From Prevotella sp. (lineage in GTDB: Bacteria; Bacteroidota; Bacteroidia; Bacteroidales; Bacteroidaceae), in NCBI GenBank assembly GCA_017557185.1, contig JAFZAP010000072.1, positions 1 to 33,536 of the forward strand: a stretch of 33,536 bases of DNA, given 5' to 3'. Below are positions 1 through 33,530 of the stretch, piece by piece. The notes beneath the pieces are model-generated. The model was not told where the DNA came from. It did no database searches and saw only the letters and a program-made list of their open reading frames with translations. Numbering within the stretch: position 1 is the stretch's first letter; each line of letters begins with the position of its first letter. Position numbers and translations under genes: made by a program.

Positions 1-372
1 AAATTGATGGGCGGATACGTCCGTGTCATCTCATAGAAGTTTGTCTGGTAGGTCTGTTGTCGGTAGTCATTCTGTACCCAGCGTGAGACGTTGGGCTGAC
101 AGCCACATCTTCTTCAAAAGTCTTCGTACTAACGGACTTTTCATTAAGTGATTGATAATAAACAGTTAATAAACAATAAATATTTTCCAATTATTTGGAA
201 AGCAACATAGAAGAATAATTAGAATAATTTATCCATTAATTCTTTCTTTGCGAATGATACGGAAGAAATTTGATGATGGAGGGCGATTCCGCGCGCGGAG
301 AGCCTCCCCCCTGCCCCTCCAAGTAGAGGGGTGCCTTTACTTCCAGCATAATCCATTCCTTTGAAAGAGTGA
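1..372. other. Intergenic region left of folK
   Basis: No gene could be supported here. Positions 1-113 contain an open minus-strand frame running off the left edge, with no ATG near its beginning. Positions about 140-250 are strongly AT-rich. A GC-rich palindromic repeat copy lies at 302-334. The region follows the 3' end of the folK operon, so a terminator is expected, but I see no convincing hairpin with a T-tract apart from the repeat itself. Confidence 0.5.
302..334 (+). repeat. Palindromic repeat copy G (forward)
   Basis: Forward copy of the dispersed GC-rich palindrome. It has a left flank GCCTCCCCC and a short stem CCCCTC (314-319) / GAGGGG (326-331). It faces copy H (395-429), forming an inverted pair with about 60 bp between them. 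It is more diverged than copies B-E. Confidence 0.6.
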
Positions 373-4982: not shown

Positions 4983-5774
4983 ATGAGTACGATCATTTAT
5001 CCAAGCCCGATTTTCGGGCCAGTCCATAGCCGTCGTCTCGGCATTTCGCTGGGCATCAACCTCATGCCTGCCGACGGAAAGGTGTGCACCTTCGACTGCA
5101 TCTACTGCGAGTGCGGACTCAACAATGAGCGCCGCCCCACTCTGCCCCGCCCCACACGCAAAATGGTGGCTGCGGCTCTCGAGGCAAAGCTGCGAGAGAT
5201 GGCTGCTGAGGGTCTACGTCCCGATGTGCTGACGTTTGCCGGCAACGGCGAACCCACAGCGCATCCGCATTTTGCAGAAATCATCGACGACACCATTCGG
5301 CTGCGCGACGAACTCTGTCCGGCTGCAAAGGTCTCGGTGCTGAGCAATGCTACACAACTGCACCGAAAGGACGTCTTCGAAGCCCTGCTGCGCGTCGATA
5401 ACAACATTCAGAAACTCGACACCATCGACATTGACTTCATCCGACTTGTCGACCGTCCCGTCAGTCCTCATTACAACGTTCAGACCATCGTCAGCCAACT
5501 ACAGGCTTTCTACGGACACGTCATCATTCAAACCATGTTTCTGAAGGGAACTCCAACCCCCGATTCTCCACTCTCCTTGATTGACAACACCACCGACGAA
5601 TATGTTCTTCCTTGGCTCGAAGCCTTGAAGGTGATTGCACCGGAACAGGTGATGATATACACCATCGACCGCGAGACACCCGTCGGCGGACTCCAGAAGG
5701 CCACTCACGAGGAACTCGACCGCATCCGCGATCTCGTCATCGCCGCAGGAATCTCCTGTACCGCATCATATTAG
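4983..5774 (+). CDS. Radical SAM protein
   Basis: The 263-residue product is a radical SAM enzyme. The cluster-binding motif is C35-x3-C39-x2-C42 (CTFDCIYC), followed by another Cys at 44, and a glycine-rich SAM motif (FAGNGEPT) lies near residue 85. It resembles the COG0731-type Fe-S oxidoreductases related to TYW1-like proteins; the reaction is not known. A frame open from TTG 4971 adds four residues, but that TTG is part of the promoter box, so ATG 4983 is preferred. The stop overlaps the 3' end of the convergent vsr gene by 9 bp. No operon partner is visible, so substrate and pathway cannot be inferred. Confidence 0.85.
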   Translation: MSTIIYPSPIFGPVHSRRLGISLGINLMPADGKVCTFDCIYCECGLNNERRPTLPRPTRKMVAAALEAKLREMAAEGLRPDVLTFAGNGEPTAHPHFAEIIDDTIRLRDELCPAAKVSVLSNATQLHRKDVFEALLRVDNNIQKLDTIDIDFIRLVDRPVSPHYNVQTIVSQLQAFYGHVIIQTMFLKGTPTPDSPLSLIDNTTDEYVLPWLEALKVIAPEQVMIYTIDRETPVGGLQKATHEELDRIRDLVIAAGISCTASY

Positions 5775-6332
5775 GGGGCCTCCCCCTCTATCTTCTGCCG
5801 CCATTCCCAGCCGACTGTCTTCTTCCTCGAGCTGTGCATAGCGGGTAGGTTGCGTGTGGTCTTGCAGGAAGATGCTGTTTAGCGTGTAGGCCAACGACTC
5901 CAGCGTTTCCTCGCGACGTTTCGGCGTGAGCTCGCACTCCCAAACCGTGATGCAATGCCACCCCATCGCAGCTAAACGACGCTGCTGCTCACGGTCGCGG
6001 AGCTGGTTGCGCCTGATCTTCTCCACCCAGAACGTCTGGTTTGTCTTCGGAATCTTACAGCACTTGGAGTTTTCAACAATCCATTCGCCACTCTCAGCAG
6101 GTGCCAAAGGCAGCTGTACCTCGTGTCCATGCCAGAAGCATCCGTTCACGAAGATACACGTCCTGTATTTCCGCAACACCAGATCCGGGTGTCCCGGCAG
6201 CCGTCTGTGGTTCAGGCGGTAACGGAATCCTTTCTTCCACAGCCCACGGCGCACCACCATCTCCGGGTTCGTATTCTTCGAGTGGATCGCCGCCATATTC
6301 ATGTGTCGCTGTTCTGCTGAGAGCTTATCCAT
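5766..6332 (-). CDS. vsr: Very short patch repair (Vsr) mismatch endonuclease
   Basis: Vsr nicks DNA beside T:G mismatches created by deamination of 5-methylcytosine. The 188-residue product begins MDKLSAEQRHMNMAAIHSKN and has RLPGHPDLVLRKYRTCIFVNGCFWHGHE, containing the PD-(D/E)XK-like catalytic Asp and the His-rich motif, then KIPKTNQTFW and ITVWECEL. Between HGH and the downstream CC-KIP lies an extra stretch of about 18 residues, so the first zinc-ligand region differs from E. coli Vsr. No cytosine methyltransferase lies beside it, although one is the usual partner. The start is ATG 6330-6332, 22 nt from a TATCTTTG promoter box. The 3' end overlaps the radical SAM gene. Confidence 0.92.
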   Translation of the reverse strand: MDKLSAEQRHMNMAAIHSKNTNPEMVVRRGLWKKGFRYRLNHRRLPGHPDLVLRKYRTCIFVNGCFWHGHEVQLPLAPAESGEWIVENSKCCKIPKTNQTFWVEKIRRNQLRDREQQRRLAAMGWHCITVWECELTPKRREETLESLAYTLNSIFLQDHTQPTRYAQLEEEDSRLGMAAEDRGGGPLI

Positions 6333-6353
6333 ATTCCTTTTTGTTCTCACCTG

Positions 6354-6383
6354 CAAAGATAAGCAAATAAAAGGAAAAACAAA
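6354..6383 (-). promoter_or_regulatory. Promoter for vsr
   Basis: On the minus strand, TTTG (6380-6383), an 18-bp spacer and TATCTTTG (6354-6361) fit the Bacteroidota promoter pattern. The vsr ATG lies 22 nt downstream. Confidence 0.7.
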
Positions 6384-15498: not shown

Positions 15499-15936
15499 TC
15501 AATGGTTCCGCCAATATACTCGGAACTTCCGTCTAATTTCGATGACTTCGCCACCGAAGTTAATAAGCAAACCATTGTCGATGCCAGTGGCATTCAGATA
15601 ATTAACCAATTGAACCTCATTGATGGGCACGATAGCGTTTACAGCCTTTAGCTCTATGATAACTTTCCCTTCGGCTATCATATCTGCGCGATACTCACCT
15701 ATCACATGTCCGCGATACTCCACTTTCAAAGGCACCTCAGTGAAGACATGAATGCCACGCTCTTTCATTTCAATGAACATCGCGTTTTTATATATCTTCT
15801 CTTCGAATCCTGGTGTGAGATACTTTCTTACGGTTTTCGCGCAATCGCAAATCTCAGAAATAAGTTCTTCTGTATCCCAAGGACTTTGATAGCCTTCTAT
15901 CAGGGTTTGTTTCAACGTATCACCCATCGTATTCAT
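15499..15936 (-). CDS. GxxExxY family protein
   Basis: The 145-residue product belongs to the GxxExxY family (TIGR04256-like), small PD-(D/E)XK-fold proteins of unknown function. The naming motif is visible as GFEEKIY near residue 43. The nuclease-like core follows: EYRADMIAEGKVIIELKAV (Asp, then Glu-x-Lys), QLVNYLNATG and GLLINFGG. An ATG at 15934-15936 is preferred over the adjoining TTG. The frame stays open upstream into the end of pepT but offers no other ATG. The gene is more AT-rich than its neighbours, suggesting transfer. It lies about 40 bp after pepT and before the antiporter, so it may be read from the pepT promoter. Confidence 0.85.
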   Translation of the reverse strand: MNTMGDTLKQTLIEGYQSPWDTEELISEICDCAKTVRKYLTPGFEEKIYKNAMFIEMKERGIHVFTEVPLKVEYRGHVIGEYRADMIAEGKVIIELKAVNAIVPINEVQLVNYLNATGIDNGLLINFGGEVIEIRRKFRVYWRNH

Positions 15937-15977
15937 CAATTCGTAAATACTCTCTATGTCAGAATTCTCTTTGTCAA

Positions 15978-17402: not shown

Positions 17403-19028
17403 ATGAATAATTCCATTATCACATTCCCCGTACCGGCCAACGAGCCGGTGAAAGCTTATCTGGCAGGCTCGCCAGAACGTGTCGCACTTGAAAAGGAACT
17501 CGAACGCCAGTCGAAGCTGGTGGTTGACATTCCCATTATCATAGGCGGAAAGGAAATCCGCACGGGCGACATCGGACAGGTGACATGCCCACACGACCAC
17601 AAGCATGTGCTCGCCACCTATCATAAAGTAAGCAAGAAAGAGGTGGAAATGGCCGTCGAGGCTGCTATGGAAGCATGGAAAGAATGGAGCCGCACACCAT
17701 GGACGACACGCGCTGCCATCGTGATGAAGATGGCCGAGCTGCTTGCCACGAAGTATCGCCCCATCATGAATGCTGCCTGCATGCTCGGACAGAGCAAGAA
17801 CATCTTCCAGGCTGAAATCGACTCTGCCTGCGAAACCATCGACTTCTTCCGCTATAACGTCCACTATGCATCGAAGATCTACCAGATGCAGCCGAAGGAC
17901 GGCTCGATGCAACTCAACCACACGGAGTACCGCCCGCTGGAAGGCTTCGTGCTCGCCGTGACACCGTTCAACTTCACATCCATTGCCTCCAACCTCTGCA
18001 TGACACCCGTGCTCATGGGCAACGTAGCTTTGTGGAAGCCTTCCACGACGGCCCTACTCTCCAACTACTACCTGATGCAGCTCTACAAGGAAGCTGGATT
18101 GCCCGATGGCGTGGTGAACTTCCTGCCGGGCAGCGGCGCGCTCATCGGCGAGGTGGCAACACAGTCGAAGTATTTCGCCGGCATTCACTTCACAGGAAGT
18201 ACTGCAACCTTCAAGAGCCTTTGGCAGCAGGCCTGCAGGAACCTCGACCGCTACATCAGCTACCCGCGTCTCGTCGGCGAGACCGGTGGCAAGGACTTCA
18301 TCTTCGTGCATCCTTCCGCCGACAAGAAGGCTGTGGCCACGGCTGCCTTCTGCGGAGCCTTCGAGTTCCAAGGACAGAAGTGTTCGGCAGCATCACGTAT
18401 GTACATCCCGAAGAGCCTCTGGCCCGACGTACTCGAGGACGTGAAGAAGATGTGTGCCGAAGTGAAGATGGGCGATGTCTGCGACCCGTCGAACTTCATC
18501 AACGCCGTCATCGACGAGGCTTCGTTCGACAAGTGCAAGTCGTACATCGACTACGCCAAGAAGGCAGACGATGCGAAGATTGTCGTTGGTGGCACATGCG
18601 ACAAGTCGAAAGGCTGGTTCGTGGAGCCTACGGTCATCGAGACATCGAACCCACGCTTCAAGTCGATGGAAGAAGAGATCTTCGGTCCGATCATCACCGT
18701 TTATCCTTACGATGACGACAAGGTGGAAGAAACCGTGAAGCTGTGCGACGAGACATCGCCTTACGGACTCACTGGTGCTGTGTTCGGTCGCGACCGCCTG
18801 GCTGTGGAGAAAATCACCAATGGCCTCTGCTATGCTGCCGGCAACTTCTCCATCAACGACAAACCGACAGGTGCCGTCGTGGGCATGCAGCCGTTCGGCG
18901 GAGCCCGTGCCAGCGGTACGAACGACAAGGCTGGTGGCGAGTTCAACCTCATTCGCTGGATCATCCCGCGTGTCATCAAGGAAACGCTGGTAAGTCCGAC
19001 CGACTATCGTTACACATATCTTAAATAA
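17403..19028 (+). CDS. pruA: L-glutamate gamma-semialdehyde (P5C) dehydrogenase
   Basis: This enzyme oxidises pyrroline-5-carboxylate, through glutamate semialdehyde, to glutamate with NAD+. The 541-residue length fits single-function bacterial P5C dehydrogenases. Aldehyde dehydrogenase motifs are visible: VTPFNFTSIA (about 182), HFTGSTATF (about 263), ETGGKDF (about 294, catalytic Glu region) and the nucleophile in GQKCSAASRMY (about 326). There is no proline dehydrogenase domain. Its substrate P5C is the product of the hydroxyproline dehydratase encoded 2.8 kb downstream on the same strand, so the two may act in one pathway. Repeat copy A follows its stop codon. Confidence 0.95.
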   Translation: MNNSIITFPVPANEPVKAYLAGSPERVALEKELERQSKLVVDIPIIIGGKEIRTGDIGQVTCPHDHKHVLATYHKVSKKEVEMAVEAAMEAWKEWSRTPWTTRAAIVMKMAELLATKYRPIMNAACMLGQSKNIFQAEIDSACETIDFFRYNVHYASKIYQMQPKDGSMQLNHTEYRPLEGFVLAVTPFNFTSIASNLCMTPVLMGNVALWKPSTTALLSNYYLMQLYKEAGLPDGVVNFLPGSGALIGEVATQSKYFAGIHFTGSTATFKSLWQQACRNLDRYISYPRLVGETGGKDFIFVHPSADKKAVATAAFCGAFEFQGQKCSAASRMYIPKSLWPDVLEDVKKMCAEVKMGDVCDPSNFINAVIDEASFDKCKSYIDYAKKADDAKIVVGGTCDKSKGWFVEPTVIETSNPRFKSMEEEIFGPIITVYPYDDDKVEETVKLCDETSPYGLTGAVFGRDRLAVEKITNGLCYAAGNFSINDKPTGAVVGMQPFGGARASGTNDKAGGEFNLIRWIIPRVIKETLVSPTDYRYTYLK

Positions 19029-19035
19029 TAAGGAG

Positions 19036-19071
19036 ACCCTCTCCCCTGCCCCTACCTAGGGAGGGGAGTGG
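19036..19071 (+). repeat. Palindromic repeat copy A (forward, single)
   Basis: Forward copy between pruA and the lipoprotein gene, with CCCCTACC / GGGAGGGG arms (one mismatch) and the GGAGGGGAGTGG right flank. No reverse partner is found nearby. It could act as a transcription terminator or attenuator between the two genes. Confidence 0.7.
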
Positions 19072-19099
19072 CTTCAAATAGAAAACTATCTCGACAAGG

Positions 19100-19954
19100 A
19101 TGAACAAACAATTTATTTACGTACCGTTATCCCTCGCTCTTCTGCTCACAGCAGTCGTGGGTTGCCACACAACAAAATCAGAGCCTGAGACAGAAGTATT
19201 GGAAGTCCCCGAATGTGTCGTTTCTGCCGTACCTGACTCGTTAGGCTACGACAAGTTCTACACGAAGTACGTCGATGTGAACGGCCTGCCGCTCGTCTCA
19301 TCTTGGCGCGTGCCCGACTCCGCCTTTGTGGCTGCCCATCGCACACTCTATGCGATGACCTCGATGTTGCGTCCGGAGATTCTTCAGTCAATGAAGAAGG
19401 CGAATGCCCGCGTTGCCATTATGGCACGCTATGAAGGTACTACCGACCTGCCTGAGCATCACTATCTCGTCAACGATACTGCTCTGAACTGGGACTTACG
19501 GGCCCGTGGCTTGGGTGGAACAATCGATGAGCCGCTCACGTCGTGTGCTGAGGAGAACGTGCTGGCCTACCAGATTGACAAGTACCACGCTGAGGACATC
19601 CTCATTCATGAGTTTGCTCACGCCATCCATTGCATCGGCATCATCCAAGTCGACACCGCTTTCAACACCCGTCTGCAGGCGCTTTATGAGAAGGCAAAGG
19701 CAAGTGGAATCCTCGACAACACCTATCGCATCACCGATAAGGAAGAATACTTCGCTGAGGGTGTGCAGGACTGGTTCAACGTGAATGCCGAGATGCCGCA
19801 TACTGACGGCAAGCACAACTGGTGCAACACCCGCGAGGAACTGCAGGAGTTCGACCCCGACCTCTACCAGTTGCTCTCGGAGTACTTCCCCAAGACAAAC
19901 CTGCAAATCAGTAAGCATAAGAAAGTAAACAACTGCAAGCGACCCACCCCCTAA
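19100..19954 (+). CDS. Putative zinc-metallopeptidase lipoprotein
   Basis: The 284-residue protein begins with a lipoprotein signal (TAVVGC, Cys22). It has a gluzincin-type motif H170-E171-F-A-H174, followed 46 residues later by EEYFAEG, where Glu220 is a likely third zinc ligand. This layout (HEFAH, then E-YFAE) recalls the lethal-factor-like metallopeptidase fold, but I do not recognise a specific family. It is probably anchored in the envelope, with peptide or protein as substrate. The last codons, RPTP and the TAA stop, come from repeat copy B, so the natural C-terminus was probably altered by the insertion. It lies in the pruA-pepP-hypD strand run and may share its transcript. Confidence 0.7.
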   Translation: MNKQFIYVPLSLALLLTAVVGCHTTKSEPETEVLEVPECVVSAVPDSLGYDKFYTKYVDVNGLPLVSSWRVPDSAFVAAHRTLYAMTSMLRPEILQSMKKANARVAIMARYEGTTDLPEHHYLVNDTALNWDLRARGLGGTIDEPLTSCAEENVLAYQIDKYHAEDILIHEFAHAIHCIGIIQVDTAFNTRLQALYEKAKASGILDNTYRITDKEEYFAEGVQDWFNVNAEMPHTDGKHNWCNTREELQEFDPDLYQLLSEYFPKTNLQISKHKKVNNCKRPTP

Positions 19955-19978
19955 CCCCTCCCTGAATGGAGGGGAGTG
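19942..19978 (+). repeat. Palindromic repeat copy B (forward)
   Basis: Forward copy with left flank ACCCACCCCCTAA and stem CCCCTCC (19955-19961) / GGAGGGG (19968-19974), then AGTG. The TAA in the flank is the stop codon of the lipoprotein gene. It pairs with copy C in opposite orientation across the DUF559 gene. Confidence 0.85.
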
Positions 19979-19992
19979 ATTACCCCATTCTG

Positions 19993-20361
19993 ATGAGTTA
20001 TAAAGCTGCGTCTCCTGATAGATATGGTCTGTTAAAGGCTTTTGCACGAGAAAACAGGAATCATGCAACTCTTGCAGAAAAAGTTCTTTGGGAATATCTA
20101 AGGTACAATCAGTTAGGAATAAAATTCCTTCGTCAACATATTATAGGAGATTATATCGTTGATTTTGCCTCTCGCGAATGTGGACTTATCATAGAAGTGG
20201 ATGGTGGGTATCACTCGGAACCACGTCAACAAGAAGACGATACCATACGTGAACAAATACTTGAACAGATGGGTTATCACATCATGCGGTTTTCGAATGA
20301 AGAAGTACTTTACGATATAGACAATGTAACGAATCAAATACTCAACTATTTCAATGAATAA
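19993..20361 (+). CDS. DUF559 (Vsr-like) endonuclease domain protein
   Basis: The 122-residue product from ATG 19993 is a DUF559 protein, a small PD-(D/E)XK/Vsr-like nuclease domain of uncertain role. Visible features are ATLAEKVLWEYLR (conserved Glu), QHIIGDYIVDFAS (Asp), GLIIEVDGGYHSE (Glu-x-Asp) and a C-terminal IMRFSNEEV strand. An in-frame ATG at 19966 lies inside repeat copy B and is less likely. The gene is clearly more AT-rich than its neighbours. Its stop overlaps the start of the aminopeptidase gene by 8 bp. Because it is the only gene between two inverted repeat copies, it is a candidate for moving those repeats. Confidence 0.85.
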   Translation: MSYKAASPDRYGLLKAFARENRNHATLAEKVLWEYLRYNQLGIKFLRQHIIGDYIVDFASRECGLIIEVDGGYHSEPRQQEDDTIREQILEQMGYHIMRFSNEEVLYDIDNVTNQILNYFNE

Positions 20362-21793
20362 TACTCAGCAAACAAGTCTATCTACTCCCCTCCCTCACAG
20401 GGAGGGGCTGGGGAGTGGGTCTTATCTCCGCCGCCGTGCCCAGTTGAAGAAGGACGTGGGAGGCGGACTGCTGCTATTCCTCGGCAACCACGAAGTGGGC
20501 ATGAACTATGCCGATAACACCTATCGGTTCCGTCAAGACTCGTCGTTCCTCTACTTCTTCGGTCTCGACTACGCTGCTTTGGCCGCTATCATCGATATTG
20601 ATGAGGATCGCGAAATCGTCTTCGGCGATGAACTCACCATCGATGATATCGTTTGGACGGGCACTGTGCCTACTCTCCACGAGCGTGCCGCCAAAGGCGG
20701 AATCAGCGACACTCGGCCGATGAGTGAGCTAAAGGTGTATCTCGACCAGGCCCGCCGCCGTGGCCAGCACATCCACTTCCTGCCGCCCTATCGCGGTGAT
20801 CACCAGATTTGGCTGTGGGAACTGCTCGGACTGAACCCGAAGGAGCAGGCTGTGCAGGTATCACAGAAGATGGTGAAAGCCATCGTTCGTCAGCGTATCT
20901 ACAAGGATGAAGAGGAAATCGCCATCATCGACGAGGCTGTTGACATGTCAACACGCATGCACCTCGCTGCCTATCGCATGGTGCGTCCAGGTCTCCACGA
21001 GGCAGAAGTGGCTGCTGTAGTCGAGCAGACCTGCTGTCGCGAGGGCTTCACGCTCTCCTTCCCCACCATCGCCACTGTGCAAGGACAGGTGCTTCACAAT
21101 CACGGCTTCATCCATACGCTGAAGGAAGGCGACATCTTCCTGCTCGATGCCGGTGCTGAAGGTCCGATGCACTATGCTGGCGACCTCTCGTCGTCGATGC
21201 CTGTTGGTGATCGGTTCACCGAGCAACAGGAGACGATCTACAACATTCATCTCGCTTCGTTCCAAGCAGCTGTCGACATGCTGAAGCCCGGCGTGCCGTT
21301 CCGCGAAGCGCATATCGCCGCCGCTACAAAGATTTGTGAGGGAATGAAGAGTCTCGGACTGATGAAGGGAGACCCTGAAGAGGCTGCCCGCATTGGAGCC
21401 TACGCCCTGTTCTTCCCCTGCGGGCTTGGTCACATGATGGGTCTCGATGTTCACAACATGGAGAACCTCGGCGAAGAGTACGTTGGCTACAACGAGGGCG
21501 AAGCGAAGTCCACACAGTTCGGTTTCAAGTCGCTGCGCCTGGCGCGTCCGCTGGAGCCCGGCTTTGTGTTCACTGTTGAGCCCGGTATCTACTTCATTCC
21601 CGAACTCATCGACAAGTGGCAAGCAGAACACCAGTTCACCGACTTCATCTGCTACGACCGACTCGGTCCGTGGCGCAACTTCACTGGCTTGCGCAACGAA
21701 CTCGACTACGTCATCACAGCCGACGGCTTCCGCCAGCTCGGCACCATTCCCAAACCGATGACGCTCGAAGAGGTCTATGCTGCCAAAGGGTGA
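20354..21793 (+). CDS. Xaa-Pro aminopeptidase, M24 family
   Basis: The enzyme removes the N-terminal residue from peptides with proline in second position. The 479-residue protein has an N-terminal domain (about 25-190, with RFRQDSSFLYFFG) and a pita-bread catalytic domain with the five metal ligands: LLDAGAE, AGDLSSS, GLGHMMGLDVHNM, TVEPGIYF and GLRNELDYV. The first ~20 residues are abnormal: STPLPHREGLGSGS is encoded by repeat copy C, and MNNTQQT by the 3' end of the DUF559 gene. Relatives start with only a few residues before YxxRRxxLKK. The start ATG 20354 overlaps the DUF559 stop, suggesting translational coupling. hypD follows after 47 bp. Confidence 0.92.
   Translation: MNNTQQTSLSTPLPHREGLGSGSYLRRRAQLKKDVGGGLLLFLGNHEVGMNYADNTYRFRQDSSFLYFFGLDYAALAAIIDIDEDREIVFGDELTIDDIVWTGTVPTLHERAAKGGISDTRPMSELKVYLDQARRRGQHIHFLPPYRGDHQIWLWELLGLNPKEQAVQVSQKMVKAIVRQRIYKDEEEIAIIDEAVDMSTRMHLAAYRMVRPGLHEAEVAAVVEQTCCREGFTLSFPTIATVQGQVLHNHGFIHTLKEGDIFLLDAGAEGPMHYAGDLSSSMPVGDRFTEQQETIYNIHLASFQAAVDMLKPGVPFREAHIAAATKICEGMKSLGLMKGDPEEAARIGAYALFFPCGLGHMMGLDVHNMENLGEEYVGYNEGEAKSTQFGFKSLRLARPLEPGFVFTVEPGIYFIPELIDKWQAEHQFTDFICYDRLGPWRNFTGLRNELDYVITADGFRQLGTIPKPMTLEEVYAAKG
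20384..20420 (-). repeat. Palindromic repeat copy C (reverse), inside the aminopeptidase 5' end
   Basis: Reverse copy with a perfect stem CCCCTCCC (20387-20394) / GGGAGGGG (20400-20407) and flank CTGGGGAGTGGGT. It is translated as part of the aminopeptidase N-terminus. It closes the DUF559 module opposite copy B. Confidence 0.85.
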
Positions 21794-21840
21794 TCCCTTC
21801 CTCTTTTCAACCCTTCAACATTACAAGCTTTCAACTCTAT

Positions 21841-24351
21841 ATGAACTTCCAGATCAAACACCCAGAGAACCTCGGCGGCATGAACGACCGCATCCGTCGC
21901 TTGCGCCAGCAGAATTTCGACACACCCACGACGCTTAGCATAGAGCGCGCACTCATCGAGACCGCCTTCTACAAGGAGAACTATGGCACGATGCCCATCG
22001 CCGTGCTGCGTGCCCGCAACTTCTACGAGATATGCAAGAAGAAGACTATTTATATCGGTGATGACGAGCTCATCGTGGGTGAGCGCGGACCTGTGCCCAA
22101 GGCCGTGCCGACATTCCCGGAACTAACGTGCCACTCGGTAGAGGATCTGCATACGCTCGACACGCGTGAGTTGCAGTCGTACCACATCTCGCAGGCTGAC
22201 ATCGACACCTACGAGCGCGAGGTGATTCCTTACTGGCAAGGCAAAACGCAGCGCGAGCGCATCTTCAACCATGTGTCGAAGGAATGGGAGGAGGCCTATC
22301 ACGCCGGTGTGTTCACCGAGTTCATGGAACAGCGCGCCGCCGGACATACCGCTATGGACGGCAAGATGTATCACGAGGGATTGCTCGACGTGAAGAAGCG
22401 CATCGAAGACCGCATCGCCCGCCTCGACTACATCTACGACCCCGAGGCTACCGACAAGCAGCAAGAGTTGGAGGCAATGGCCATCTCGTGCGATGCCGCC
22501 ATCCTCTTTGCCGAAAGGCATGCGGAGTTGGCGGAACAAATGGCTGCAAAAGAAACCAACCCGCAACGCAAGAAGGAGTTGGAGAAGATTGCCGATGTTT
22601 GTCATCATGTGCCTGCCCATGCACCACGCGACCTCTGGGAAGCCATTCAGATGTACTGGTTCGTACATCTGGGCACCGTTACTGAGCTCAACGGCTGGGA
22701 TTCCATGAACCCCGGTCACATCGACCAGCACCTCTATCCCTTCTACCAGAAAGGCGTGGAGGATGGTACGCTCACCCGCGATGATGCCAAGGAGCTGCTG
22801 TCGTGCCTGTGGATCAAGTTCAACAACCAGCCCGCACCGCCGAAGGTGGGTGTGACGGCATTGGAGAGCGGCACCTACAACGACTTCACAAATATAAATA
22901 TAGGTGGTGTCGACCGCGAAGGACGTAGTGCCACGAATGAGTTGTCGTTCATGATACTGGAGATTCAGGAAGAGCTGCACGAGTTGCAGCCGGGTCTCTC
23001 CATTCATATTGCAGAGAACACGCCCGACGACTTCCTCATCGAAGGCATCAAGGTCATCCGCCAAGGTCACGGCTACCCAAGCATCTTCAATCCTGATACA
23101 TATATAAAGGAACTCGTGCGCGACGGCAAGTCGCTCGAGGATGCCCGCGAGGGCGGCTGTTCGGGCTGCATCGAGGTGGGCGCCTTCGGCAAGGAAGCCT
23201 ATCTGCTCACGGGCTATCTGAACACGCCGAAGATTCTGGAGATTACGCTGAACAACGGCATAGACCCCGAAACAGGCAAGAAACTCGGCCTTGAGACTGG
23301 CGACCCGCGCACGTTCGAGACCTTCGAACAGCTCTACGACGCCTGGCATAAGCAGATGGTGTACTTCGTGAACCTGAAACTCTCGGTGAACAACTACATC
23401 GAGCGCATGTTCTCGCTCTATGCTCCCGCTACGTTCCTCTCGCTCTACATCGACGACTGCATCGAAAAGGGCCGCGACTACTACAGCGGTGGCGCGCGCT
23501 ATAACACCACCTACATACAATGCACCGGCCTTGGAACCATCACCGACTGCTTCACTACGCTGAAGAAGCACGTTTTTGAAGACAAACGCTATACAATGGA
23601 CGAGATACTGGAAGCGTGTGCTACCAACTGGGGGGAACCCACCCCCACCCCCTCCCGAGGGGAGGGGAGTTTGGCTACTCTCGCTCTTGATAACGCAAAA
23701 ACAGAAACAAATCAGACTCCCCTCCCCTTGGGAGGGGCTGGGGGTGGGTTTCAGGTCATGCGCACCTATATACGCAACCACACGCCGTTCTTCGGCAACG
23801 ACGACGAATATGCCGACGCGATTGCGGTTCGCGTGTATGAAGATCTGGTGAAAGCCATCGACAACCGCCCGAACACCCGCGGAGGTCGCACACGTCTGAA
23901 CATGCTCTCCACCACCTGCCACAACTACTTCGGCAGCGTCTGCGGAGCAACACCCAACGGACGACTGGCCCACTTCGCCATCAGCGACGGCACCTCGCCA
24001 GCTCACGGCAGCGACTCCCACGGCCCGACGGCAGTCATCAAATCACTCGGTAAGCTCGACCAGACAAAGTCGGGTGGCACCCTGCTCAACGTGCGCTTCG
24101 TGCCGAACCTGCTACGTCGCGACAAGGATCTCGAGAAGATGGCTTCGCTCATCCGCACCTACTTCAAGTTCGGCGGACACCACATCCAGTTCAACATCGT
24201 TGACACCGCTACCCTCCTCGATGCCCAGAAGCATCCCGACCAATATCGCGATCTGCTCGTTCGCGTGGCTGGCTATAGCGACTATTTCAACGATATGACC
24301 GAACAGCTGCAGAACGAGATCATCGCCCGCACCGAGAACGACGAGATGTAG
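21841..24351 (+). CDS. hypD: Trans-4-hydroxy-L-proline dehydratase (glycyl radical enzyme)
   Basis: HypD dehydrates trans-4-hydroxy-L-proline to pyrroline-5-carboxylate in anaerobes, using a glycyl radical. From ATG 21841 the protein has 836 residues. It shows the active-site GCIE (Cys443, Glu445), Tyr459 sixteen residues after the Cys, GHT near residue 165, NGWD, SGTYNDF, and the radical site RVAGYSDYF (Gly811). These match residues I recall for Clostridioides difficile HypD, so the call is specific within glycyl radical enzymes. Residues about 600-636 are a foreign insert encoded by a repeat pair. The frame opens upstream at 21616, but that part overlaps the aminopeptidase. The required activating enzyme is not beside it. 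P5C made here could go to PruA. Confidence 0.9.
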   Translation: MNFQIKHPENLGGMNDRIRRLRQQNFDTPTTLSIERALIETAFYKENYGTMPIAVLRARNFYEICKKKTIYIGDDELIVGERGPVPKAVPTFPELTCHSVEDLHTLDTRELQSYHISQADIDTYEREVIPYWQGKTQRERIFNHVSKEWEEAYHAGVFTEFMEQRAAGHTAMDGKMYHEGLLDVKKRIEDRIARLDYIYDPEATDKQQELEAMAISCDAAILFAERHAELAEQMAAKETNPQRKKELEKIADVCHHVPAHAPRDLWEAIQMYWFVHLGTVTELNGWDSMNPGHIDQHLYPFYQKGVEDGTLTRDDAKELLSCLWIKFNNQPAPPKVGVTALESGTYNDFTNINIGGVDREGRSATNELSFMILEIQEELHELQPGLSIHIAENTPDDFLIEGIKVIRQGHGYPSIFNPDTYIKELVRDGKSLEDAREGGCSGCIEVGAFGKEAYLLTGYLNTPKILEITLNNGIDPETGKKLGLETGDPRTFETFEQLYDAWHKQMVYFVNLKLSVNNYIERMFSLYAPATFLSLYIDDCIEKGRDYYSGGARYNTTYIQCTGLGTITDCFTTLKKHVFEDKRYTMDEILEACATNWGEPTPTPSRGEGSLATLALDNAKTETNQTPLPLGGAGGGFQVMRTYIRNHTPFFGNDDEYADAIAVRVYEDLVKAIDNRPNTRGGRTRLNMLSTTCHNYFGSVCGATPNGRLAHFAISDGTSPAHGSDSHGPTAVIKSLGKLDQTKSGGTLLNVRFVPNLLRRDKDLEKMASLIRTYFKFGGHHIQFNIVDTATLLDAQKHPDQYRDLLVRVAGYSDYFNDMTEQLQNEIIARTENDEM
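23637..23750. repeat. Paired palindromic repeats D/E inserted in frame in hypD
   Basis: Forward copy D (23637-23670, stem CCCCTCCC at 23649-23656 / GGGAGGGG at 23660-23667) and reverse copy E (23716-23750, stem 23719-23726 / 23730-23737) are near-perfect reverse complements over about 35 bp. They are separated by a 45-bp spacer. The block is 114 bp, or 38 codons, keeps the hypD frame and has no stop. It encodes PTPTPSRGEGS, a spacer peptide, then TPLPLGGAGGG. The sequence on both sides is normal HypD. Confidence 0.85.
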
Positions 24352-24416: not shown

Positions 24417-24511
24417 ATTGTTCGTTTTGCCTGCTCTCATGTCATCAAAAGATGCCTTTCTTGCCTCTATCTCAATGCTCTAAATCATCAAAAGAAATGA
24501 GGTGATTTTGC

Positions 24512-24643
24512 AAATTAAGTTGTTTTGTTCAGTAAATTAAGTTAATTTAATCAGTAAATTAAGTTATTTTACTCGGTAAATTAAGTTATTTTACTTAGCA
24601 AATTAAGTTAATTTACCGCACAAATTAAGTTAATTTACTGAAC
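24512..24643. repeat. Six tandem 22-bp dyad repeats
   Basis: Six consecutive units of exactly 22 bp, each beginning AAATTAAGTT. Units 2, 5 and 6 contain the perfect dyad AAATTAA-G-TTAATTT; units 1, 3 and 4 vary in the right half. The last ~6 bp of each unit is variable. A 22-bp period is about two helix turns, so all units would face the same side of the DNA. The array lies between the hypD terminator and the promoter of the DUF697 gene and could be an operator array. Confidence 0.85.
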
Positions 24644-31226: not shown

Positions 31227-31318
31227 AAGTGAAGTTGTATAATTAATTATTGATGATGACGGAGCAGCGGGTGAGGATAAAGCTCGTTGCTCCGTTGTTA
31301 AGAAGAAGGAGAGATACA

Positions 31319-32791
31319 ATGAAAAGACACCTTAGAATCATTCAAACTATAGTGTTCCTGATGCTGTGCTGCCTGCCTATGGCAGCACAGCTGAACGGAA
31401 CGGGCTACTACCGCTTCCGCAATGCTCAGAATACGAGCAACTATATTAGTCTGGCAAATGACAAGTTCAGTTATCAATTCCTGTTTGGAAGCTCCCCAGA
31501 TAGCAATTTTGGCTCTGCACAGCAAATCGGTGGTGGTTTGTCAAACCTGAGCAATAACACAACTACGGTGAAGGATCTGATATTCAAAGGGGCTGAAATC
31601 TTCATGAAAAATGCTATTCATTTGGAGGAAGATCCCGACTGTATTGACCCCTCAACAATTCTTTATCTGAAGAATAGTTCAGGTTCTTCCTATAACATCA
31701 TAGGTCAGGGTACAAGTTTACTTACACTGACAACGGGTAGCTATAAGGCCAGCGTAGAGTTGATTTTCAATGATATTTATGCTACAATAGCGAGAAGCAG
31801 CGGGAGCGGAGCAAATGCAATATATACGGCATCTGTGAATATTGCAGCTTCGGATGTGGAGAATATCAGTTATAATAGTTTCCTCTTTAATTTGGGCAAA
31901 AACACTTTCATGTCTCAGGCCAAATTGGGGGCTTATTATTTCTATGACAATAATGGGACTTTTGGCATCAGCAGTTCTAATTCTGCCCAAAATGCGAAAT
32001 GGTATATTGAACCTGTTACTCATTTCAATGTGAAGCCTGAGGTAGAATTCGCGGGGAAGTATTACACAACTTTGTGTGTGCCATTTGCCTATAAGCTAAG
32101 CGGACAGGTTAAGAAAGCGTATGCCATTAAAAGCATAGGGACTGATGGCAAGCTGGACGTAGAAGAAATCGCTGTTAGCGGAGGTACAGTGGCTGCAGGA
32201 ACATCTGTATTGCTGGAATGTGGAAGCGATGTTGCTTCGGAATGTAAGTTGGAGTTGGTTGTAACAGAGCCGACCTTTACTGCTGCAGTGGAGAAAGTGC
32301 AATATGCACCAGCAGCTACAAAGCCAACAGTTAGTCAGAACAACATCCTGAAGGGAACGTACTTCTGTAATGAAGATCCAACATTCTCCTATCAATACAA
32401 CAGAGACGGAACATCAACATCATCAACGTTAACCCTGCAAAATTTCACTGCTCCGACCAATCCGCAGAAGTATGTTGTCGGCATAACAGCATCAGGGAAG
32501 TTGGGCTTTGTGACAGCAACAGGGACTGCAATGCCAGCCAACAAGGCGTGGCTGGAATACACGGGTTCGGCAGAATTAGTATTGCCATTCGAGAAAGTGT
32601 TGCTGGGCGATGTGAACAACGATGGCAATATCACGATTGCTGACGTAACTGCTCTGGTGAATATACTGGCCTCCCCCGACCCCTCCCAAGGAGGGGAGTA
32701 TAACCTCCAGGCTGCGGATGTGGACGGCAACGGCAGGGTGACGAGTGACGACATCGAAGCATTGGTGAACATGATATTAAACCCAAATTGA
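31319..32791 (+). CDS. Secreted protein with dockerin-like C-terminus, related to the preceding gene
   Basis: From ATG 31319 the product is 490 residues with a signal peptide (ending PMAAQ). The N-terminal region (GYYRFRNAQ...) and a central region (GKYYTT...FAY...VKKAYAI...AGTSVLLECGS) parallel segments of the preceding protein (GFYTIKNN; GKFYTT...FAY...VKAYIVEE...AQTPVLLVSS), so the two are partial paralogues. The C-terminus has two dockerin-like repeats, GDVNNDGNITIADV and DVDGNGRVTSDDI, separated by SPDPSQGGE, which is encoded by repeat copy F. The frame could start at 31250, but the signal peptide follows ATG 31319. It lies 92 bp after the large protein and likely shares its transcript, ending at the 32843 terminator. 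Confidence 0.8.
   Translation: MKRHLRIIQTIVFLMLCCLPMAAQLNGTGYYRFRNAQNTSNYISLANDKFSYQFLFGSSPDSNFGSAQQIGGGLSNLSNNTTTVKDLIFKGAEIFMKNAIHLEEDPDCIDPSTILYLKNSSGSSYNIIGQGTSLLTLTTGSYKASVELIFNDIYATIARSSGSGANAIYTASVNIAASDVENISYNSFLFNLGKNTFMSQAKLGAYYFYDNNGTFGISSSNSAQNAKWYIEPVTHFNVKPEVEFAGKYYTTLCVPFAYKLSGQVKKAYAIKSIGTDGKLDVEEIAVSGGTVAAGTSVLLECGSDVASECKLELVVTEPTFTAAVEKVQYAPAATKPTVSQNNILKGTYFCNEDPTFSYQYNRDGTSTSSTLTLQNFTAPTNPQKYVVGITASGKLGFVTATGTAMPANKAWLEYTGSAELVLPFEKVLLGDVNNDGNITIADVTALVNILASPDPSQGGEYNLQAADVDGNGRVTSDDIEALVNMILNPN
32671..32699 (+). repeat. Palindromic repeat copy F (forward, single), inside a dockerin
   Basis: Forward copy with left flank CTCCCCCGA, stem CCCCTCC (32680-32686) / GGAGGGG (32690-32696) and loop CAA, then AGT. 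It is in frame and encodes SPDPSQGGE in the linker between the two dockerin repeats. No reverse partner is found. Confidence 0.8.
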
Positions 32792-32987: not shown

Positions 32988-33103
32988 CCCGAAGGGCATT
33001 GAACACCGAAGGGCATTGAACCTTTTTAACGTGACGAAGTCACTATTGAATCTCTTGAACATGACGAAGTCACAATTGAACCTTTTGAACTTTTAAACTC
33101 GAC
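32988..33103 (+). repeat. Left arm of hairpin array (GAA loops with ATTGAAC spacers)
   Basis: Small perfect stems with GAA loops (GCCC-GAA-GGGC and GTGAC-GAA-GTCAC) alternate with ATTGAAC or TTGAAC. Two 30-bp direct units lie at 33031-33060 and 33061-33090. The arm ends in AACTCGACCG, which also ends the inverted arm at 33466-33530. Confidence 0.75.
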
Positions 33104-33134
33104 CGTAGTGAGAAAAGGTTGACCTTGTTTTTGG

Positions 33135-33200
33135 TCAAAACTCAATGCTTTTCGCCTCAAAACTCTATGCTTTCTTCCTCAAAACTCAATGCTTTTCGGG
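33135..33200 (+). repeat. Three tandem 22-bp repeats
   Basis: Units at 33135-33156, 33157-33178 and 33179-33200 start TCAAAACTC(A/T)ATGCTTT and differ mostly at their ends. Related units occur inverted at 33351-33394. Confidence 0.85.
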
Positions 33201-33266
33201 GTTCATCGACATGCGGTAGGGGTTGGGGTGAGTCTGAGAGTCCGTAGGCGGACATGTTCCAATTTC

Positions 33267-33332
33267 ATTACCACGCCCTGGTAGAGGCATTACCGCATAG
33301 CGGTATCGGCATTACCAGATAGTGGTGGCGAT
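33267..33332. repeat. 22-bp-spaced dyads starting ATTACC
   Basis: ATTACC occurs at 33267, 33289 and 33311, each the start of a small dyad (TACCA-CGCCC-TGGTA, TACCGC-ATA-GCGGTA, ACCA-GATAG-TGGT). A diverged unit follows from 33331. The spacing is 22 bp. Confidence 0.7.
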
Positions 33333-33350
33333 TCTGGTATATCGGTGACC

Positions 33351-33394
33351 GCCGTAAAGCTATGGGTTTTCACTCGTAAAGCATAGAGTTTTGA
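33351..33394 (-). repeat. Two inverted 22-bp units
   Basis: Read on the minus strand, 33373-33394 and 33351-33372 give units similar to those at 33135-33200, with TCAAAACTCTATGCTTT in the better copy. Confidence 0.75.
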
Positions 33395-33465
33395 GCAAAA
33401 ACAAGAGCTACTGTCTCCCTTCTTTCTCCGCTATGCTGCGAAAACGTCTCCTTACGTCGCCGAGC

Positions 33466-33530
33466 GCGGTCGAGTTCAAGAAGTTCAATTGTGACTTTGT
33501 CACGTTCAATGCCTTCGGCGTTCAAATTGT
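33466..33530 (-). repeat. Right (inverted) arm of hairpin array
   Basis: Inverted relative to 32988-33103: on the minus strand it reads GAACGCCGAAGGCATTGAAC, then the 30-bp unit (33474-33503) with GTGAC-AAA-GTCAC, then AACTCGACCG. Confidence 0.75.

What the first reader, a model, noticed from the sequence alone, without database searches (positions are those of the whole stretch)
19942..20420. DUF559 nuclease gene enclosed by an inverted pair of palindromic repeats: a possible REPIN/RAYT-like system with a different enzyme
Seen: forward copy B and reverse copy C of the same GC-rich palindrome bracket one small, AT-rich DUF559 gene and nothing else, and other inverted pairs without the gene occur elsewhere in the window. 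Known: RAYT transposases (Y1 HUH) are flanked by inverted REPs and mobilise non-autonomous REP pairs. Inference: DUF559, a PD-(D/E)XK/Vsr-like nuclease, may play the matching role for this repeat family, perhaps by nicking at the hairpin. The gene could equally be a passenger between recombining repeats.
Basis: partly seen in the sequence, partly recalled or inferred. Interest (0 to 1): 0.85.

Follow-up and report, generated by a model that had tools for sequence, protein, structure and literature searches.

The report
Nuclease gene inside mobile palindrome ends
A tiny DNA-cutting enzyme gene sits between two mirror-image hairpin repeats, and the whole unit looks like a new kind of jumping DNA seen in several bacterial groups and sometimes in frame inside working genes, although nobody has yet shown the enzyme doing the moving.

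Summary
Observation confirmed: a 131-aa DUF559 gene (19966-20361) lies between two head-out GC-rich hairpin repeats (19941-19978, 20383-20421). It is no local accident. Of 90 DUF559 domains from the same bacterial family, 69 have inverted-repeat flanks (score 30 or more), against 5 of 1316 control places and 10 of 349 other ORFs. Six or more repeat copies occur in 19 of 40 DUF559 genomes and 6 of 111 others. The two ends match each other, and repeat type tracks nuclease clade across genera. Of 34 gene-sized head-out pairs 33 hold DUF559; short pairs hold no gene. Relatives lack the unit at this site and in priA. Two near-complete repeat-rich genomes have no Y1/RAYT match, and Y1 genes carry other repeats. 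Similar flanks occur in other Bacteroidota, Deinococcus, cyanobacteria and alphaproteobacteria. Some units lie in frame inside host enzymes. Best reading: a one-gene mobile element whose Vsr/EDxHD-type nuclease serves hairpin ends, working like REPIN/RAYT but not a member. Cleavage and transposition are inferred. Against it: six repeat-rich genomes lack DUF559.

The parts
19941..19978 (+). left terminal repeat: C-rich head (outward) plus hairpin 19955-19974 plus AGTG
19966..20361 (+). DUF559 PD-(D/E)XK (Vsr/EDxHD-type) nuclease gene, 131 aa; alternative in-frame start 19993
   Evidence: PF04480 E 9.6e-34; active-site residues; fold
20383..20421 (-). right terminal repeat, inverted; hairpin 20387-20407; also encodes part of the new N-terminus of the downstream gene
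23636..23750 (.). gene-less pair: same repeat in inverted orientation, 39 nt between arms, in frame inside the pyruvate-formate-lyase-like ORF 21616-24351 (name recalled from sequence, no family search run)
   Evidence: (I4); not present in this form in 16 relatives' junctions
314..331 (+). palindrome of the same type, in a weak head-out pair about 314-418
19032..19068 (+). single copy of the repeat, at the 3' end of ORF 17403-19028
32670..32700 (.). single palindrome of the same type inside ORF 31250-32791
20354..21793 (+). host gene (aminopeptidase P-like, PF05195/PF00557) whose N-terminal codons now come from the element

Best explanation
A minimal mobile element. Its one gene is a DUF559 nuclease of the Vsr/EDxHD PD-(D/E)XK type and its ends are inverted, head-out, C-rich hairpin repeats. 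The nuclease recognises the hairpin with its head, probably as single-stranded DNA or an extruded cruciform during replication, and nicks there. Break repair or strand exchange then carries the whole 0.45-0.6 kb unit, or in trans any gene-less pair of the same repeats, to new sites. Ends that stay open in one reading frame let units land inside genes without killing them. Shown here: anatomy, association, matched ends, clade coupling, empty sites, homologous units at other sites, intact active site, independence from Y1/RAYT enzymes in two genomes. Inferred: hairpin recognition, nicking, transposition in trans, the DNA intermediate.
For: Flank inverted-repeat test: 69 of 90 DUF559 at score 30 or more against 5 of 1316 places and 10 of 349 other ORFs. 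Independent hairpin finder: both flanks 60 of 91, one 20, none 11; control both 0, one 25, of 358. Consecutive repeats at most 300 bp apart: head-out inverted 23, direct 10, head-in 1, orientation unclear 7; gene-sized head-out pairs hold DUF559 in 33 of 34 (most of this DNA was chosen for its DUF559). Ends match within an element more than between elements of one genome (0.407 against 0.679, MWU 3e-15), and the nearest DUF559 of another genus has more similar repeats (0.594 against 0.714, Wilcoxon 1.8e-7). Six or more copies: 19 of 40 genomes with strong DUF559, 6 of 111 others, Fisher 1.3e-8. Empty sites: priA in 19 of 19 junctions read, the window site in the 5 relatives that aligned; the window's unit matches as a unit or nearly so elsewhere in six genomes. 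G056 and G092 (99% complete, 65 and 71 copies) have DUF559 but no Y1_Tnp match; of five Y1_Tnp loci read, four have other repeats and none this one. D, E, D, H, D invariant in 91 of 91 domains. Fold matches 3hrl and homing endonuclease I-Bth0305I. Other phyla: 14 of 25 at score 40 or more, control 3 of 124; other Bacteroidota families 20 of 29 at 30 or more (best-scoring loci of the sample, no control in that call).
Against: No nicking or movement was observed. No clean excision or target duplication was found; at the window site about 27 bp of target seem lost (by eye) and the intergenic sites compared are hypervariable. Six of 25 repeat-rich genomes have no DUF559 match; G017 (90% complete, 240 contigs) has 139 copies, many in direct tandem. 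G137 has 23 copies but its one DUF559 has no matching flanks (score 15). 21 of 90 domains score under 30 and 11 of 91 have no detected hairpin on either side. Fifteen of 17 non-Prevotella-type Bacteroidota loci score under 30. Eleven of 25 loci of other phyla score under 40. Ends in several alphaproteobacteria are head-in, not head-out (by eye). Some element counts share vertical descent. The all-pairs clade correlation is weak (rho 0.18) and not significant within single genomes in the first script (44 of 500 permutations). DUF559 in leucyl-tRNA synthetase has no recognisable ends. A Caulobacter DUF559 protein is reported as a Vsr-like enzyme (PMC12907096, passages).
Confidence: 0.6

Rival explanations
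1. Homing into the repeats. The palindrome pairs are spread by something else. DUF559 is a selfish homing endonuclease that cuts existing palindrome pairs, and repair from another copy, using the repeats as homology arms, swaps its gene in as the spacer.
For: Closest solved relative besides 3hrl is a homing endonuclease, I-Bth0305I. Pairs come with short or DUF559 spacers and little else. At one site two species carry different repeat types (L257 and L293). Repeats outnumber DUF559 genes (76 copies for six strong genes in the window's own genome). One of 19 relatives (L104) has a short imperfect palindrome at the priA site and one (L116) a gene-less pair some 50 bp away.
Against: No pair was seen at the priA site itself in the 19 relatives read or at the window site in 5. 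Repeat load is 0-1 in the four genomes of the window's genus without any DUF559 match, which homing alone would not predict. No other candidate mobiliser was found, but only Y1_Tnp was searched for.
Confidence: 0.2
2. RAYT-driven repeats. A Y1/HUH transposase moves the palindromes and DUF559 is cargo.
For: Anatomy is that of REPIN/RAYT (PMC2817692, passages). 55 of 151 family genomes have a Y1_Tnp match, the window's own and G017 among them.
Against: G056 and G092 have 65 and 71 copies and no Y1_Tnp match at E 1e-3. The five Y1_Tnp loci read hold none of these palindromes; four have their own repeats, GCCCTGAAAGGGC or GCCCCAAAGGGGC type.
Confidence: 0.05
3. Host repair gene with bracketing regulatory hairpins. 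DUF559 is a Vsr-like repair nuclease and the palindromes are terminators or mRNA stabilisers.
For: Caulobacter VsrA carries DUF559 and is proposed to act as Vsr (PMC12907096, passages). GC-rich hairpins can act as terminators (general knowledge).
Against: Patchy presence (49 of 151), several diverse copies per genome, in-frame insertion inside other enzymes, many copies away from DUF559, no Rfam match in 18900-24000.
Confidence: 0.08

Closest known systems
REPIN/RAYT (REP-associated tyrosine transposases)
   Same: one small nuclease gene between two inverted hairpin repeats, gene-less pairs and single repeats elsewhere, repeat type co-varying with the enzyme
   Different: enzyme is DUF559 PD-(D/E)XK, not HUH/Y1; C-rich head instead of a GTAG/CGTC tag; Y1_Tnp genes of the same family carry different repeats
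EDxHD/Vsr-type homing endonucleases (I-Bth0305I, 3r3p; its EDxHD label is recalled)
   Same: same fold and aligned core; selfish single nuclease gene
   Different: no intron or intein recognised at the locus, dispersed sites, own hairpin ends, gene-less derivatives
Rickettsia palindromic elements
   Same: palindromic units inserted in frame in unrelated protein genes (PMC10969869, passages)
   Different: no nuclease gene is tied to them in the passages read; here the unit can carry DUF559
IS200/IS605 elements
   Same: hairpins near the ends, small unit, no large target duplication (PMC2817692 and PMC6006769 as seen in passages and listing)
   Different: enzyme class; inverted ends
Vsr very-short-patch repair endonuclease
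   Same: related fold (1vsr, Foldseek prob 0.91 but E 0.19)
   Different: a repair enzyme, not known to me as mobile

Membership tests
REPIN/RAYT | Y1/HUH transposase (PF01797) | tested here: not met
   gene is PF04480, no PF01797 match; G056 and G092 are repeat-rich without any PF01797 match
REPIN/RAYT | gene flanked by two repeats in inverted orientation | tested here: met
REPIN/RAYT | GTAG- or CGTC-type tag beside the hairpin | tested here: not met
   read by eye: heads are GACCCACCCCC, GCCTCACCCCC, AGCCCCCTCC and the like
REPIN/RAYT | repeat and enzyme co-evolve | tested here: met
   (nearest other-genus neighbour, Wilcoxon 1.8e-7; all pairs between genera rho 0.18, 2 of 1000 permutations as high)
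REPIN/RAYT | enzyme cleaves its repeat as single strand | not testable with these tools
   needs purified protein
EDxHD/Vsr homing endonuclease | PD-(D/E)XK fold with this catalytic set | tested here: met
   D, E, D, H, D invariant in 91 of 91; 3r3p E 1.1e-6 by profile, Foldseek E 2.4e-5; which of these residues are catalytic is recalled
EDxHD/Vsr homing endonuclease | lies in an intron or intein and homes to the allelic empty site | tested here: inconclusive
   no Rfam family matched at the locus and no intein domain in the Pfam hits; units at dispersed sites with own ends; homing into repeats is not excluded
Rickettsia palindromic elements | palindromic units in frame inside protein genes | tested here: met
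Vsr repair enzyme | nicks T:G mismatches, often beside a cytosine methylase | not tested
   no assay; methylase neighbourhood not examined

The most novel reading that the evidence does not exclude
DUF559 nucleases are the mobilisers of a pan-bacterial class of hairpin-ended elements, in effect a PD-(D/E)XK-driven counterpart of REPIN/RAYT. The widespread C-rich palindromes of the CCCCTCTCCC..GGGAGAGGGG kind (abundance outside Bacteroidota recalled, not measured here) are their gene-less offspring. The units are adapted to land in frame inside important enzymes, PriA and methionine synthase among them, much as inteins do; whether any splicing follows is unknown.
Probability: 0.45. Interest if true: 0.95.

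Novelty: categorically new. Interest (0 to 1): 0.86.

Why it matters
No mobile element known to me has a PD-(D/E)XK nuclease as its only gene together with inverted hairpin ends. If right, it gives a function to a common domain of unknown function, a source for abundant GC-rich palindromes, and a second, unrelated solution to the REPIN/RAYT way of life. It also gives natural examples of a whole nuclease domain carried in frame inside other enzymes. It makes the question of what spreads these palindromes directly testable with one small protein and a 40-nt oligonucleotide.

Tried and rejected
Chance pairing of GC-rich motifs: rejected. RAYT as mover: rejected for G056 and G092. Random passenger: weakened, because 33 of 34 gene-sized head-out pairs hold DUF559. 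Two of the ten other ORFs with flank score 30 or more (L076 3266-5143, L055 7751-8398) do have C-rich palindromes on both sides; one (L084) lies at a Y1_Tnp match. Known RNA element: no Rfam hit in 18900-24000. Known defence gene: only weak PADLOC hits, best a homing endonuclease model at 5.6e-7; PHROGs best 1.6e-6. Target-site duplication by comparing G056 with G092: 20 stretches of G056 fetched, 16 with a counterpart in the G092 stretches held, two of these partial; three aligned through without gaps of note (L264, L268, L272), the eight junctions printed differ by long variable stretches, no clean duplication. The first clade-coupling script defined the repeats from the left-right alignment and had a self-match error in the nearest-neighbour test; one search replaces it. 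E. coli DUF559 (L302) has a palindrome of this kind on one side only. One search printed all results and then stopped on a file-writing error.

Rows dropped before counts: L066 (contig end); L178 (short flank); duplicates by sequence, 100 to 91. Of 38 plasmid records with a match, 25 were fetched and tested, 13 not. The 29 loci are the best-scoring matches outside the family that one search returned, not a random draw. Loci partly repeat elements (for example L147 and L044), so the two counts must not be added. Strong DUF559 means best E below 1e-20; nine further genomes have only weaker matches.
Full report
WHAT IS THERE. The window (contig C62 of a 3.35-Mb draft) carries a 131-aa DUF559 gene at 19966-20361 (PF04480, E 9.6e-34). 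It lies between a forward copy (19941-19978) and a reverse copy (20383-20421) of one repeat: a C-rich head pointing outward, then a hairpin, then AGT. The gene is AT-rich, G+C 0.38 against 0.51. The same repeat occurs as a gene-less inverted pair at 23636-23750 and as further single or weakly paired copies. The draft holds five more strong DUF559 genes and one weak match. Read by eye, all six strong ones are bracketed by inverted palindromes; the automatic test passes five of the six at score 30, the sixth (L094) scores 21. The repeat differs between loci but agrees within a locus. In one, the DUF559 domain and both repeats form a single open frame inside priA.

IS IT MORE THAN CHANCE. I aligned 350 bp left of each DUF559 domain with the reverse complement of 350 bp to the right, with no repeat sequence assumed. 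Of 90 domains from the same family 69 score 30 or more and 39 score 50 or more; of 1316 control places in the same stretches 5 and 0 do. Around 349 other ORFs more than 400 bp from a DUF559, 10 score 30 or more; two of these have C-rich palindromes and one lies at the place of a Y1_Tnp match, in effect a positive control. A separate hairpin finder gives both flanks in 60 of 91, one in 20, none in 11; random places 0, 25 and 333 of 358. Some of the 91 share descent at the same site (for example L021/L029 and L067/L072), so the number of independent insertions is smaller.

THE GENE BELONGS TO THE UNIT. In 1.14 Mb of held DNA the head-out pairs fall in two classes: short gene-less ones, 15-168 nt between hairpins (23), and gene-sized ones, 406-689 nt (34). 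Of the 34, 33 hold DUF559 (one is a second copy of a stretch already counted) and one holds other sequence. Most of that DNA was chosen because it holds DUF559, so the telling number is the single gene-sized pair without it. Among consecutive repeats at most 300 bp apart, 23 are head-out inverted, 10 direct, 1 head-in and 7 of unclear orientation. Some gene-less pairs and DUF559 units share inner sequence next to the hairpin, such as AGTRRWTAC and AGTAGAATG (by eye), as MITEs share ends with their parent.

LOCK AND KEY. The two ends of one unit are closer to each other than to ends of other units in the same genome (0.407 against 0.679, n 60 and 130, p 3e-15). For each DUF559 the nearest protein in another genus has more similar repeats than other-genus proteins in general (0.594 against 0.714, p 1.8e-7). 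The all-pairs correlation between genera is weak, rho 0.18, reached by 2 of 1000 permutations.

ABUNDANCE. In 151 genomes of the family, 40 have a strong DUF559 (E below 1e-20) and 9 only weaker matches. Six or more copies of CCCCTCCN{1,10}GGAGGGGAG occur in 19 of the 40 and in 6 of the other 111; the reversed pattern gives 0-1 per strand. The test is not corrected for relatedness. Within the window's genus, four genomes with 47-76 copies all carry DUF559; the other six have 0-1 copies and one of them has a strong DUF559. The pattern sees only one of several repeat types, so carriers with other types count as repeat-poor. Against this, G017 has 139 copies and no DUF559 match, many of them in direct tandem, and G137 has 23 copies while its one DUF559 has no matching flanks.

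MOBILITY. The priA site lacks the unit in all 19 relatives whose junctions I read; one has a short imperfect palindrome there and one a gene-less pair some 50 bp away. The window site is empty in the five relatives that aligned: by eye, the insertion replaced about 27 bp of an overlapping gene junction while supplying a new end to one gene and a new start to the next. The unit itself matches at 69-73%, end to end or nearly so, in other genomic places in six genomes, two of which (G259, G199) share one site. The gene-less pair at 23636 is not found in relatives, while the same linker holds other palindrome pairs in two species and single palindromes in two more, of 16 read. In three Deinococcus species DUF559 sits at three different junctions of one hpa operon. 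No target duplication or clean excision was seen.

IN-FRAME LANDING. Seven of 91 family domains lie deep inside long open frames, with 180 or more residues on either side; four of these seven pass the flank test at 30. Hosts by Pfam: PriA, a MiaB-like protein (within Radical_SAM), a SpoIID-like protein twice, a RecD-like helicase, a DegT aminotransferase, and a frame with epimerase and polysaccharide-synthesis domains (protein names beyond the Pfam labels are mine). Elsewhere in Bacteroidota DUF559 lies in frame in leucyl-tRNA synthetase (two loci, flank scores 15 and 18, no recognisable ends), methionine synthase MetH (two loci, 37 and 30), type I R proteins (two loci) and, as a C-terminal fusion, after a PurL-type GATase domain. 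Peptide scars such as PSPLPLGEDLGEGK beside the domain are translated repeats.

THE ENZYME. Residues D55, E66, D68, H72 and D81 (numbered from the domain start) are invariant in 91 domains, T24, E27 and W31 nearly so. The AlphaFold model (pLDDT 83.6) matches 3hrl, a putative endonuclease, at E 5.8e-7, the homing endonuclease I-Bth0305I at 2.4e-5, and Vsr more weakly (E 0.19); profile search agrees on the first two. A DUF559 protein of Caulobacter is reported as Vsr-like (PMC12907096, passages seen).

NOT RAYT. Genomes G056 and G092 (99% complete, two contigs each, 65 and 71 copies) have DUF559 but no Y1_Tnp match. Five Y1_Tnp loci of the family, of 55 genomes with a match, were read: none holds these palindromes, and four are flanked by repeats of another kind. 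So two systems seem to live side by side.

HOW WIDE. Named Bacteroidota loci: 54 of 62 Prevotella-type at 30 or more against 4 of 763 control places, but only 2 of 17 others against 0 of 224; by eye about ten of the 17 show short C-headed hairpins on both sides. Phylum sample: 109 of 198 genomes have a match, and 20 of the 29 best-scoring loci outside the family score 30 or more (no control in that call). Other phyla, from plasmid records: 14 of 25 at 40 or more, 3 of 124 control places. Strong cases are Pseudanabaena, Deinococcus, Sphingomonas (one between sufB and sufC), Sphingobium, Qipengyuania, Novosphingobium and S. meliloti (an IS lies beside the last). No sign in Photobacterium, Shinella, Methylobacterium, two of three Azospirillum and Sinorhizobium K101. 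Several alphaproteobacterial ends point inward.

MECHANISM. Most likely (0.6) the nuclease nicks at its hairpin ends and the unit moves by single-strand or break-repair steps, also serving gene-less pairs in trans. The next reading (0.2) is homing into pre-existing palindrome pairs. Both need the nuclease to act on the repeats; only bench work or very close strain pairs can part them.

LITERATURE. Open-access papers only. The two searches that required DUF559 together with repeat or Bacteroid gave 9 and 2 papers, none on this association by title and abstract start. Wider searches showed no report of it among the papers listed, but searches list only the top 8-15 of longer lists. Passages only were read of PMC3733652, PMC2817692, PMC10969869, PMC12907096 and PMC12350094. 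Absence in print is therefore not proven.

Noticed in passing
window 5769-6356 (-): A Vsr-family gene (PF03852, E 3.1e-30), a separate nuclease in the same window; no repeat bracket was looked for in particular.
   Followed up: no
window 15502-15939 (-): AT-rich PDDEXK_3 gene (PF13366); the weak DUF559 hit L007 of the same genome looks similar to it by eye.
   Followed up: no
window 24483-24636: Tandem array of a 22-nt unit (AAATTAAGTTATTTT core) between genes.
   Followed up: no
window 33015-33509: Direct and inverted repeats of 22-57 nt (TCAAAACTCAATGCTTTTCG and TTGAACATGACGAAGTCACA types), not related to the palindrome.
   Followed up: no
L322, L327, L328, L329: Y1_Tnp (RAYT-like) genes with their own GCCCTGAAAGGGC or GCCCCAAAGGGGC repeats on both sides.
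   Followed up: partly
L227-L256 (G017): 139 copies of the same palindrome type in the genome, many in direct tandem about 57-70 bp apart, in a draft with no DUF559 match.
   Followed up: partly
L332, L335: DUF559 in frame inside leucyl-tRNA synthetase of two genomes, without recognisable repeat ends: perhaps an old, fixed insertion.
   Followed up: partly
L076 3266-5143: A 626-aa ORF near a broken DUF559 gene has C-rich palindromes on both sides: a rare non-DUF559 gene that is bracketed.
   Followed up: no
L055 4697-4800, 7656-7759, 8415-8538: Three gene-less pairs with nearly the same inner end sequence within 4 kb, looking like recent copies.
   Followed up: no
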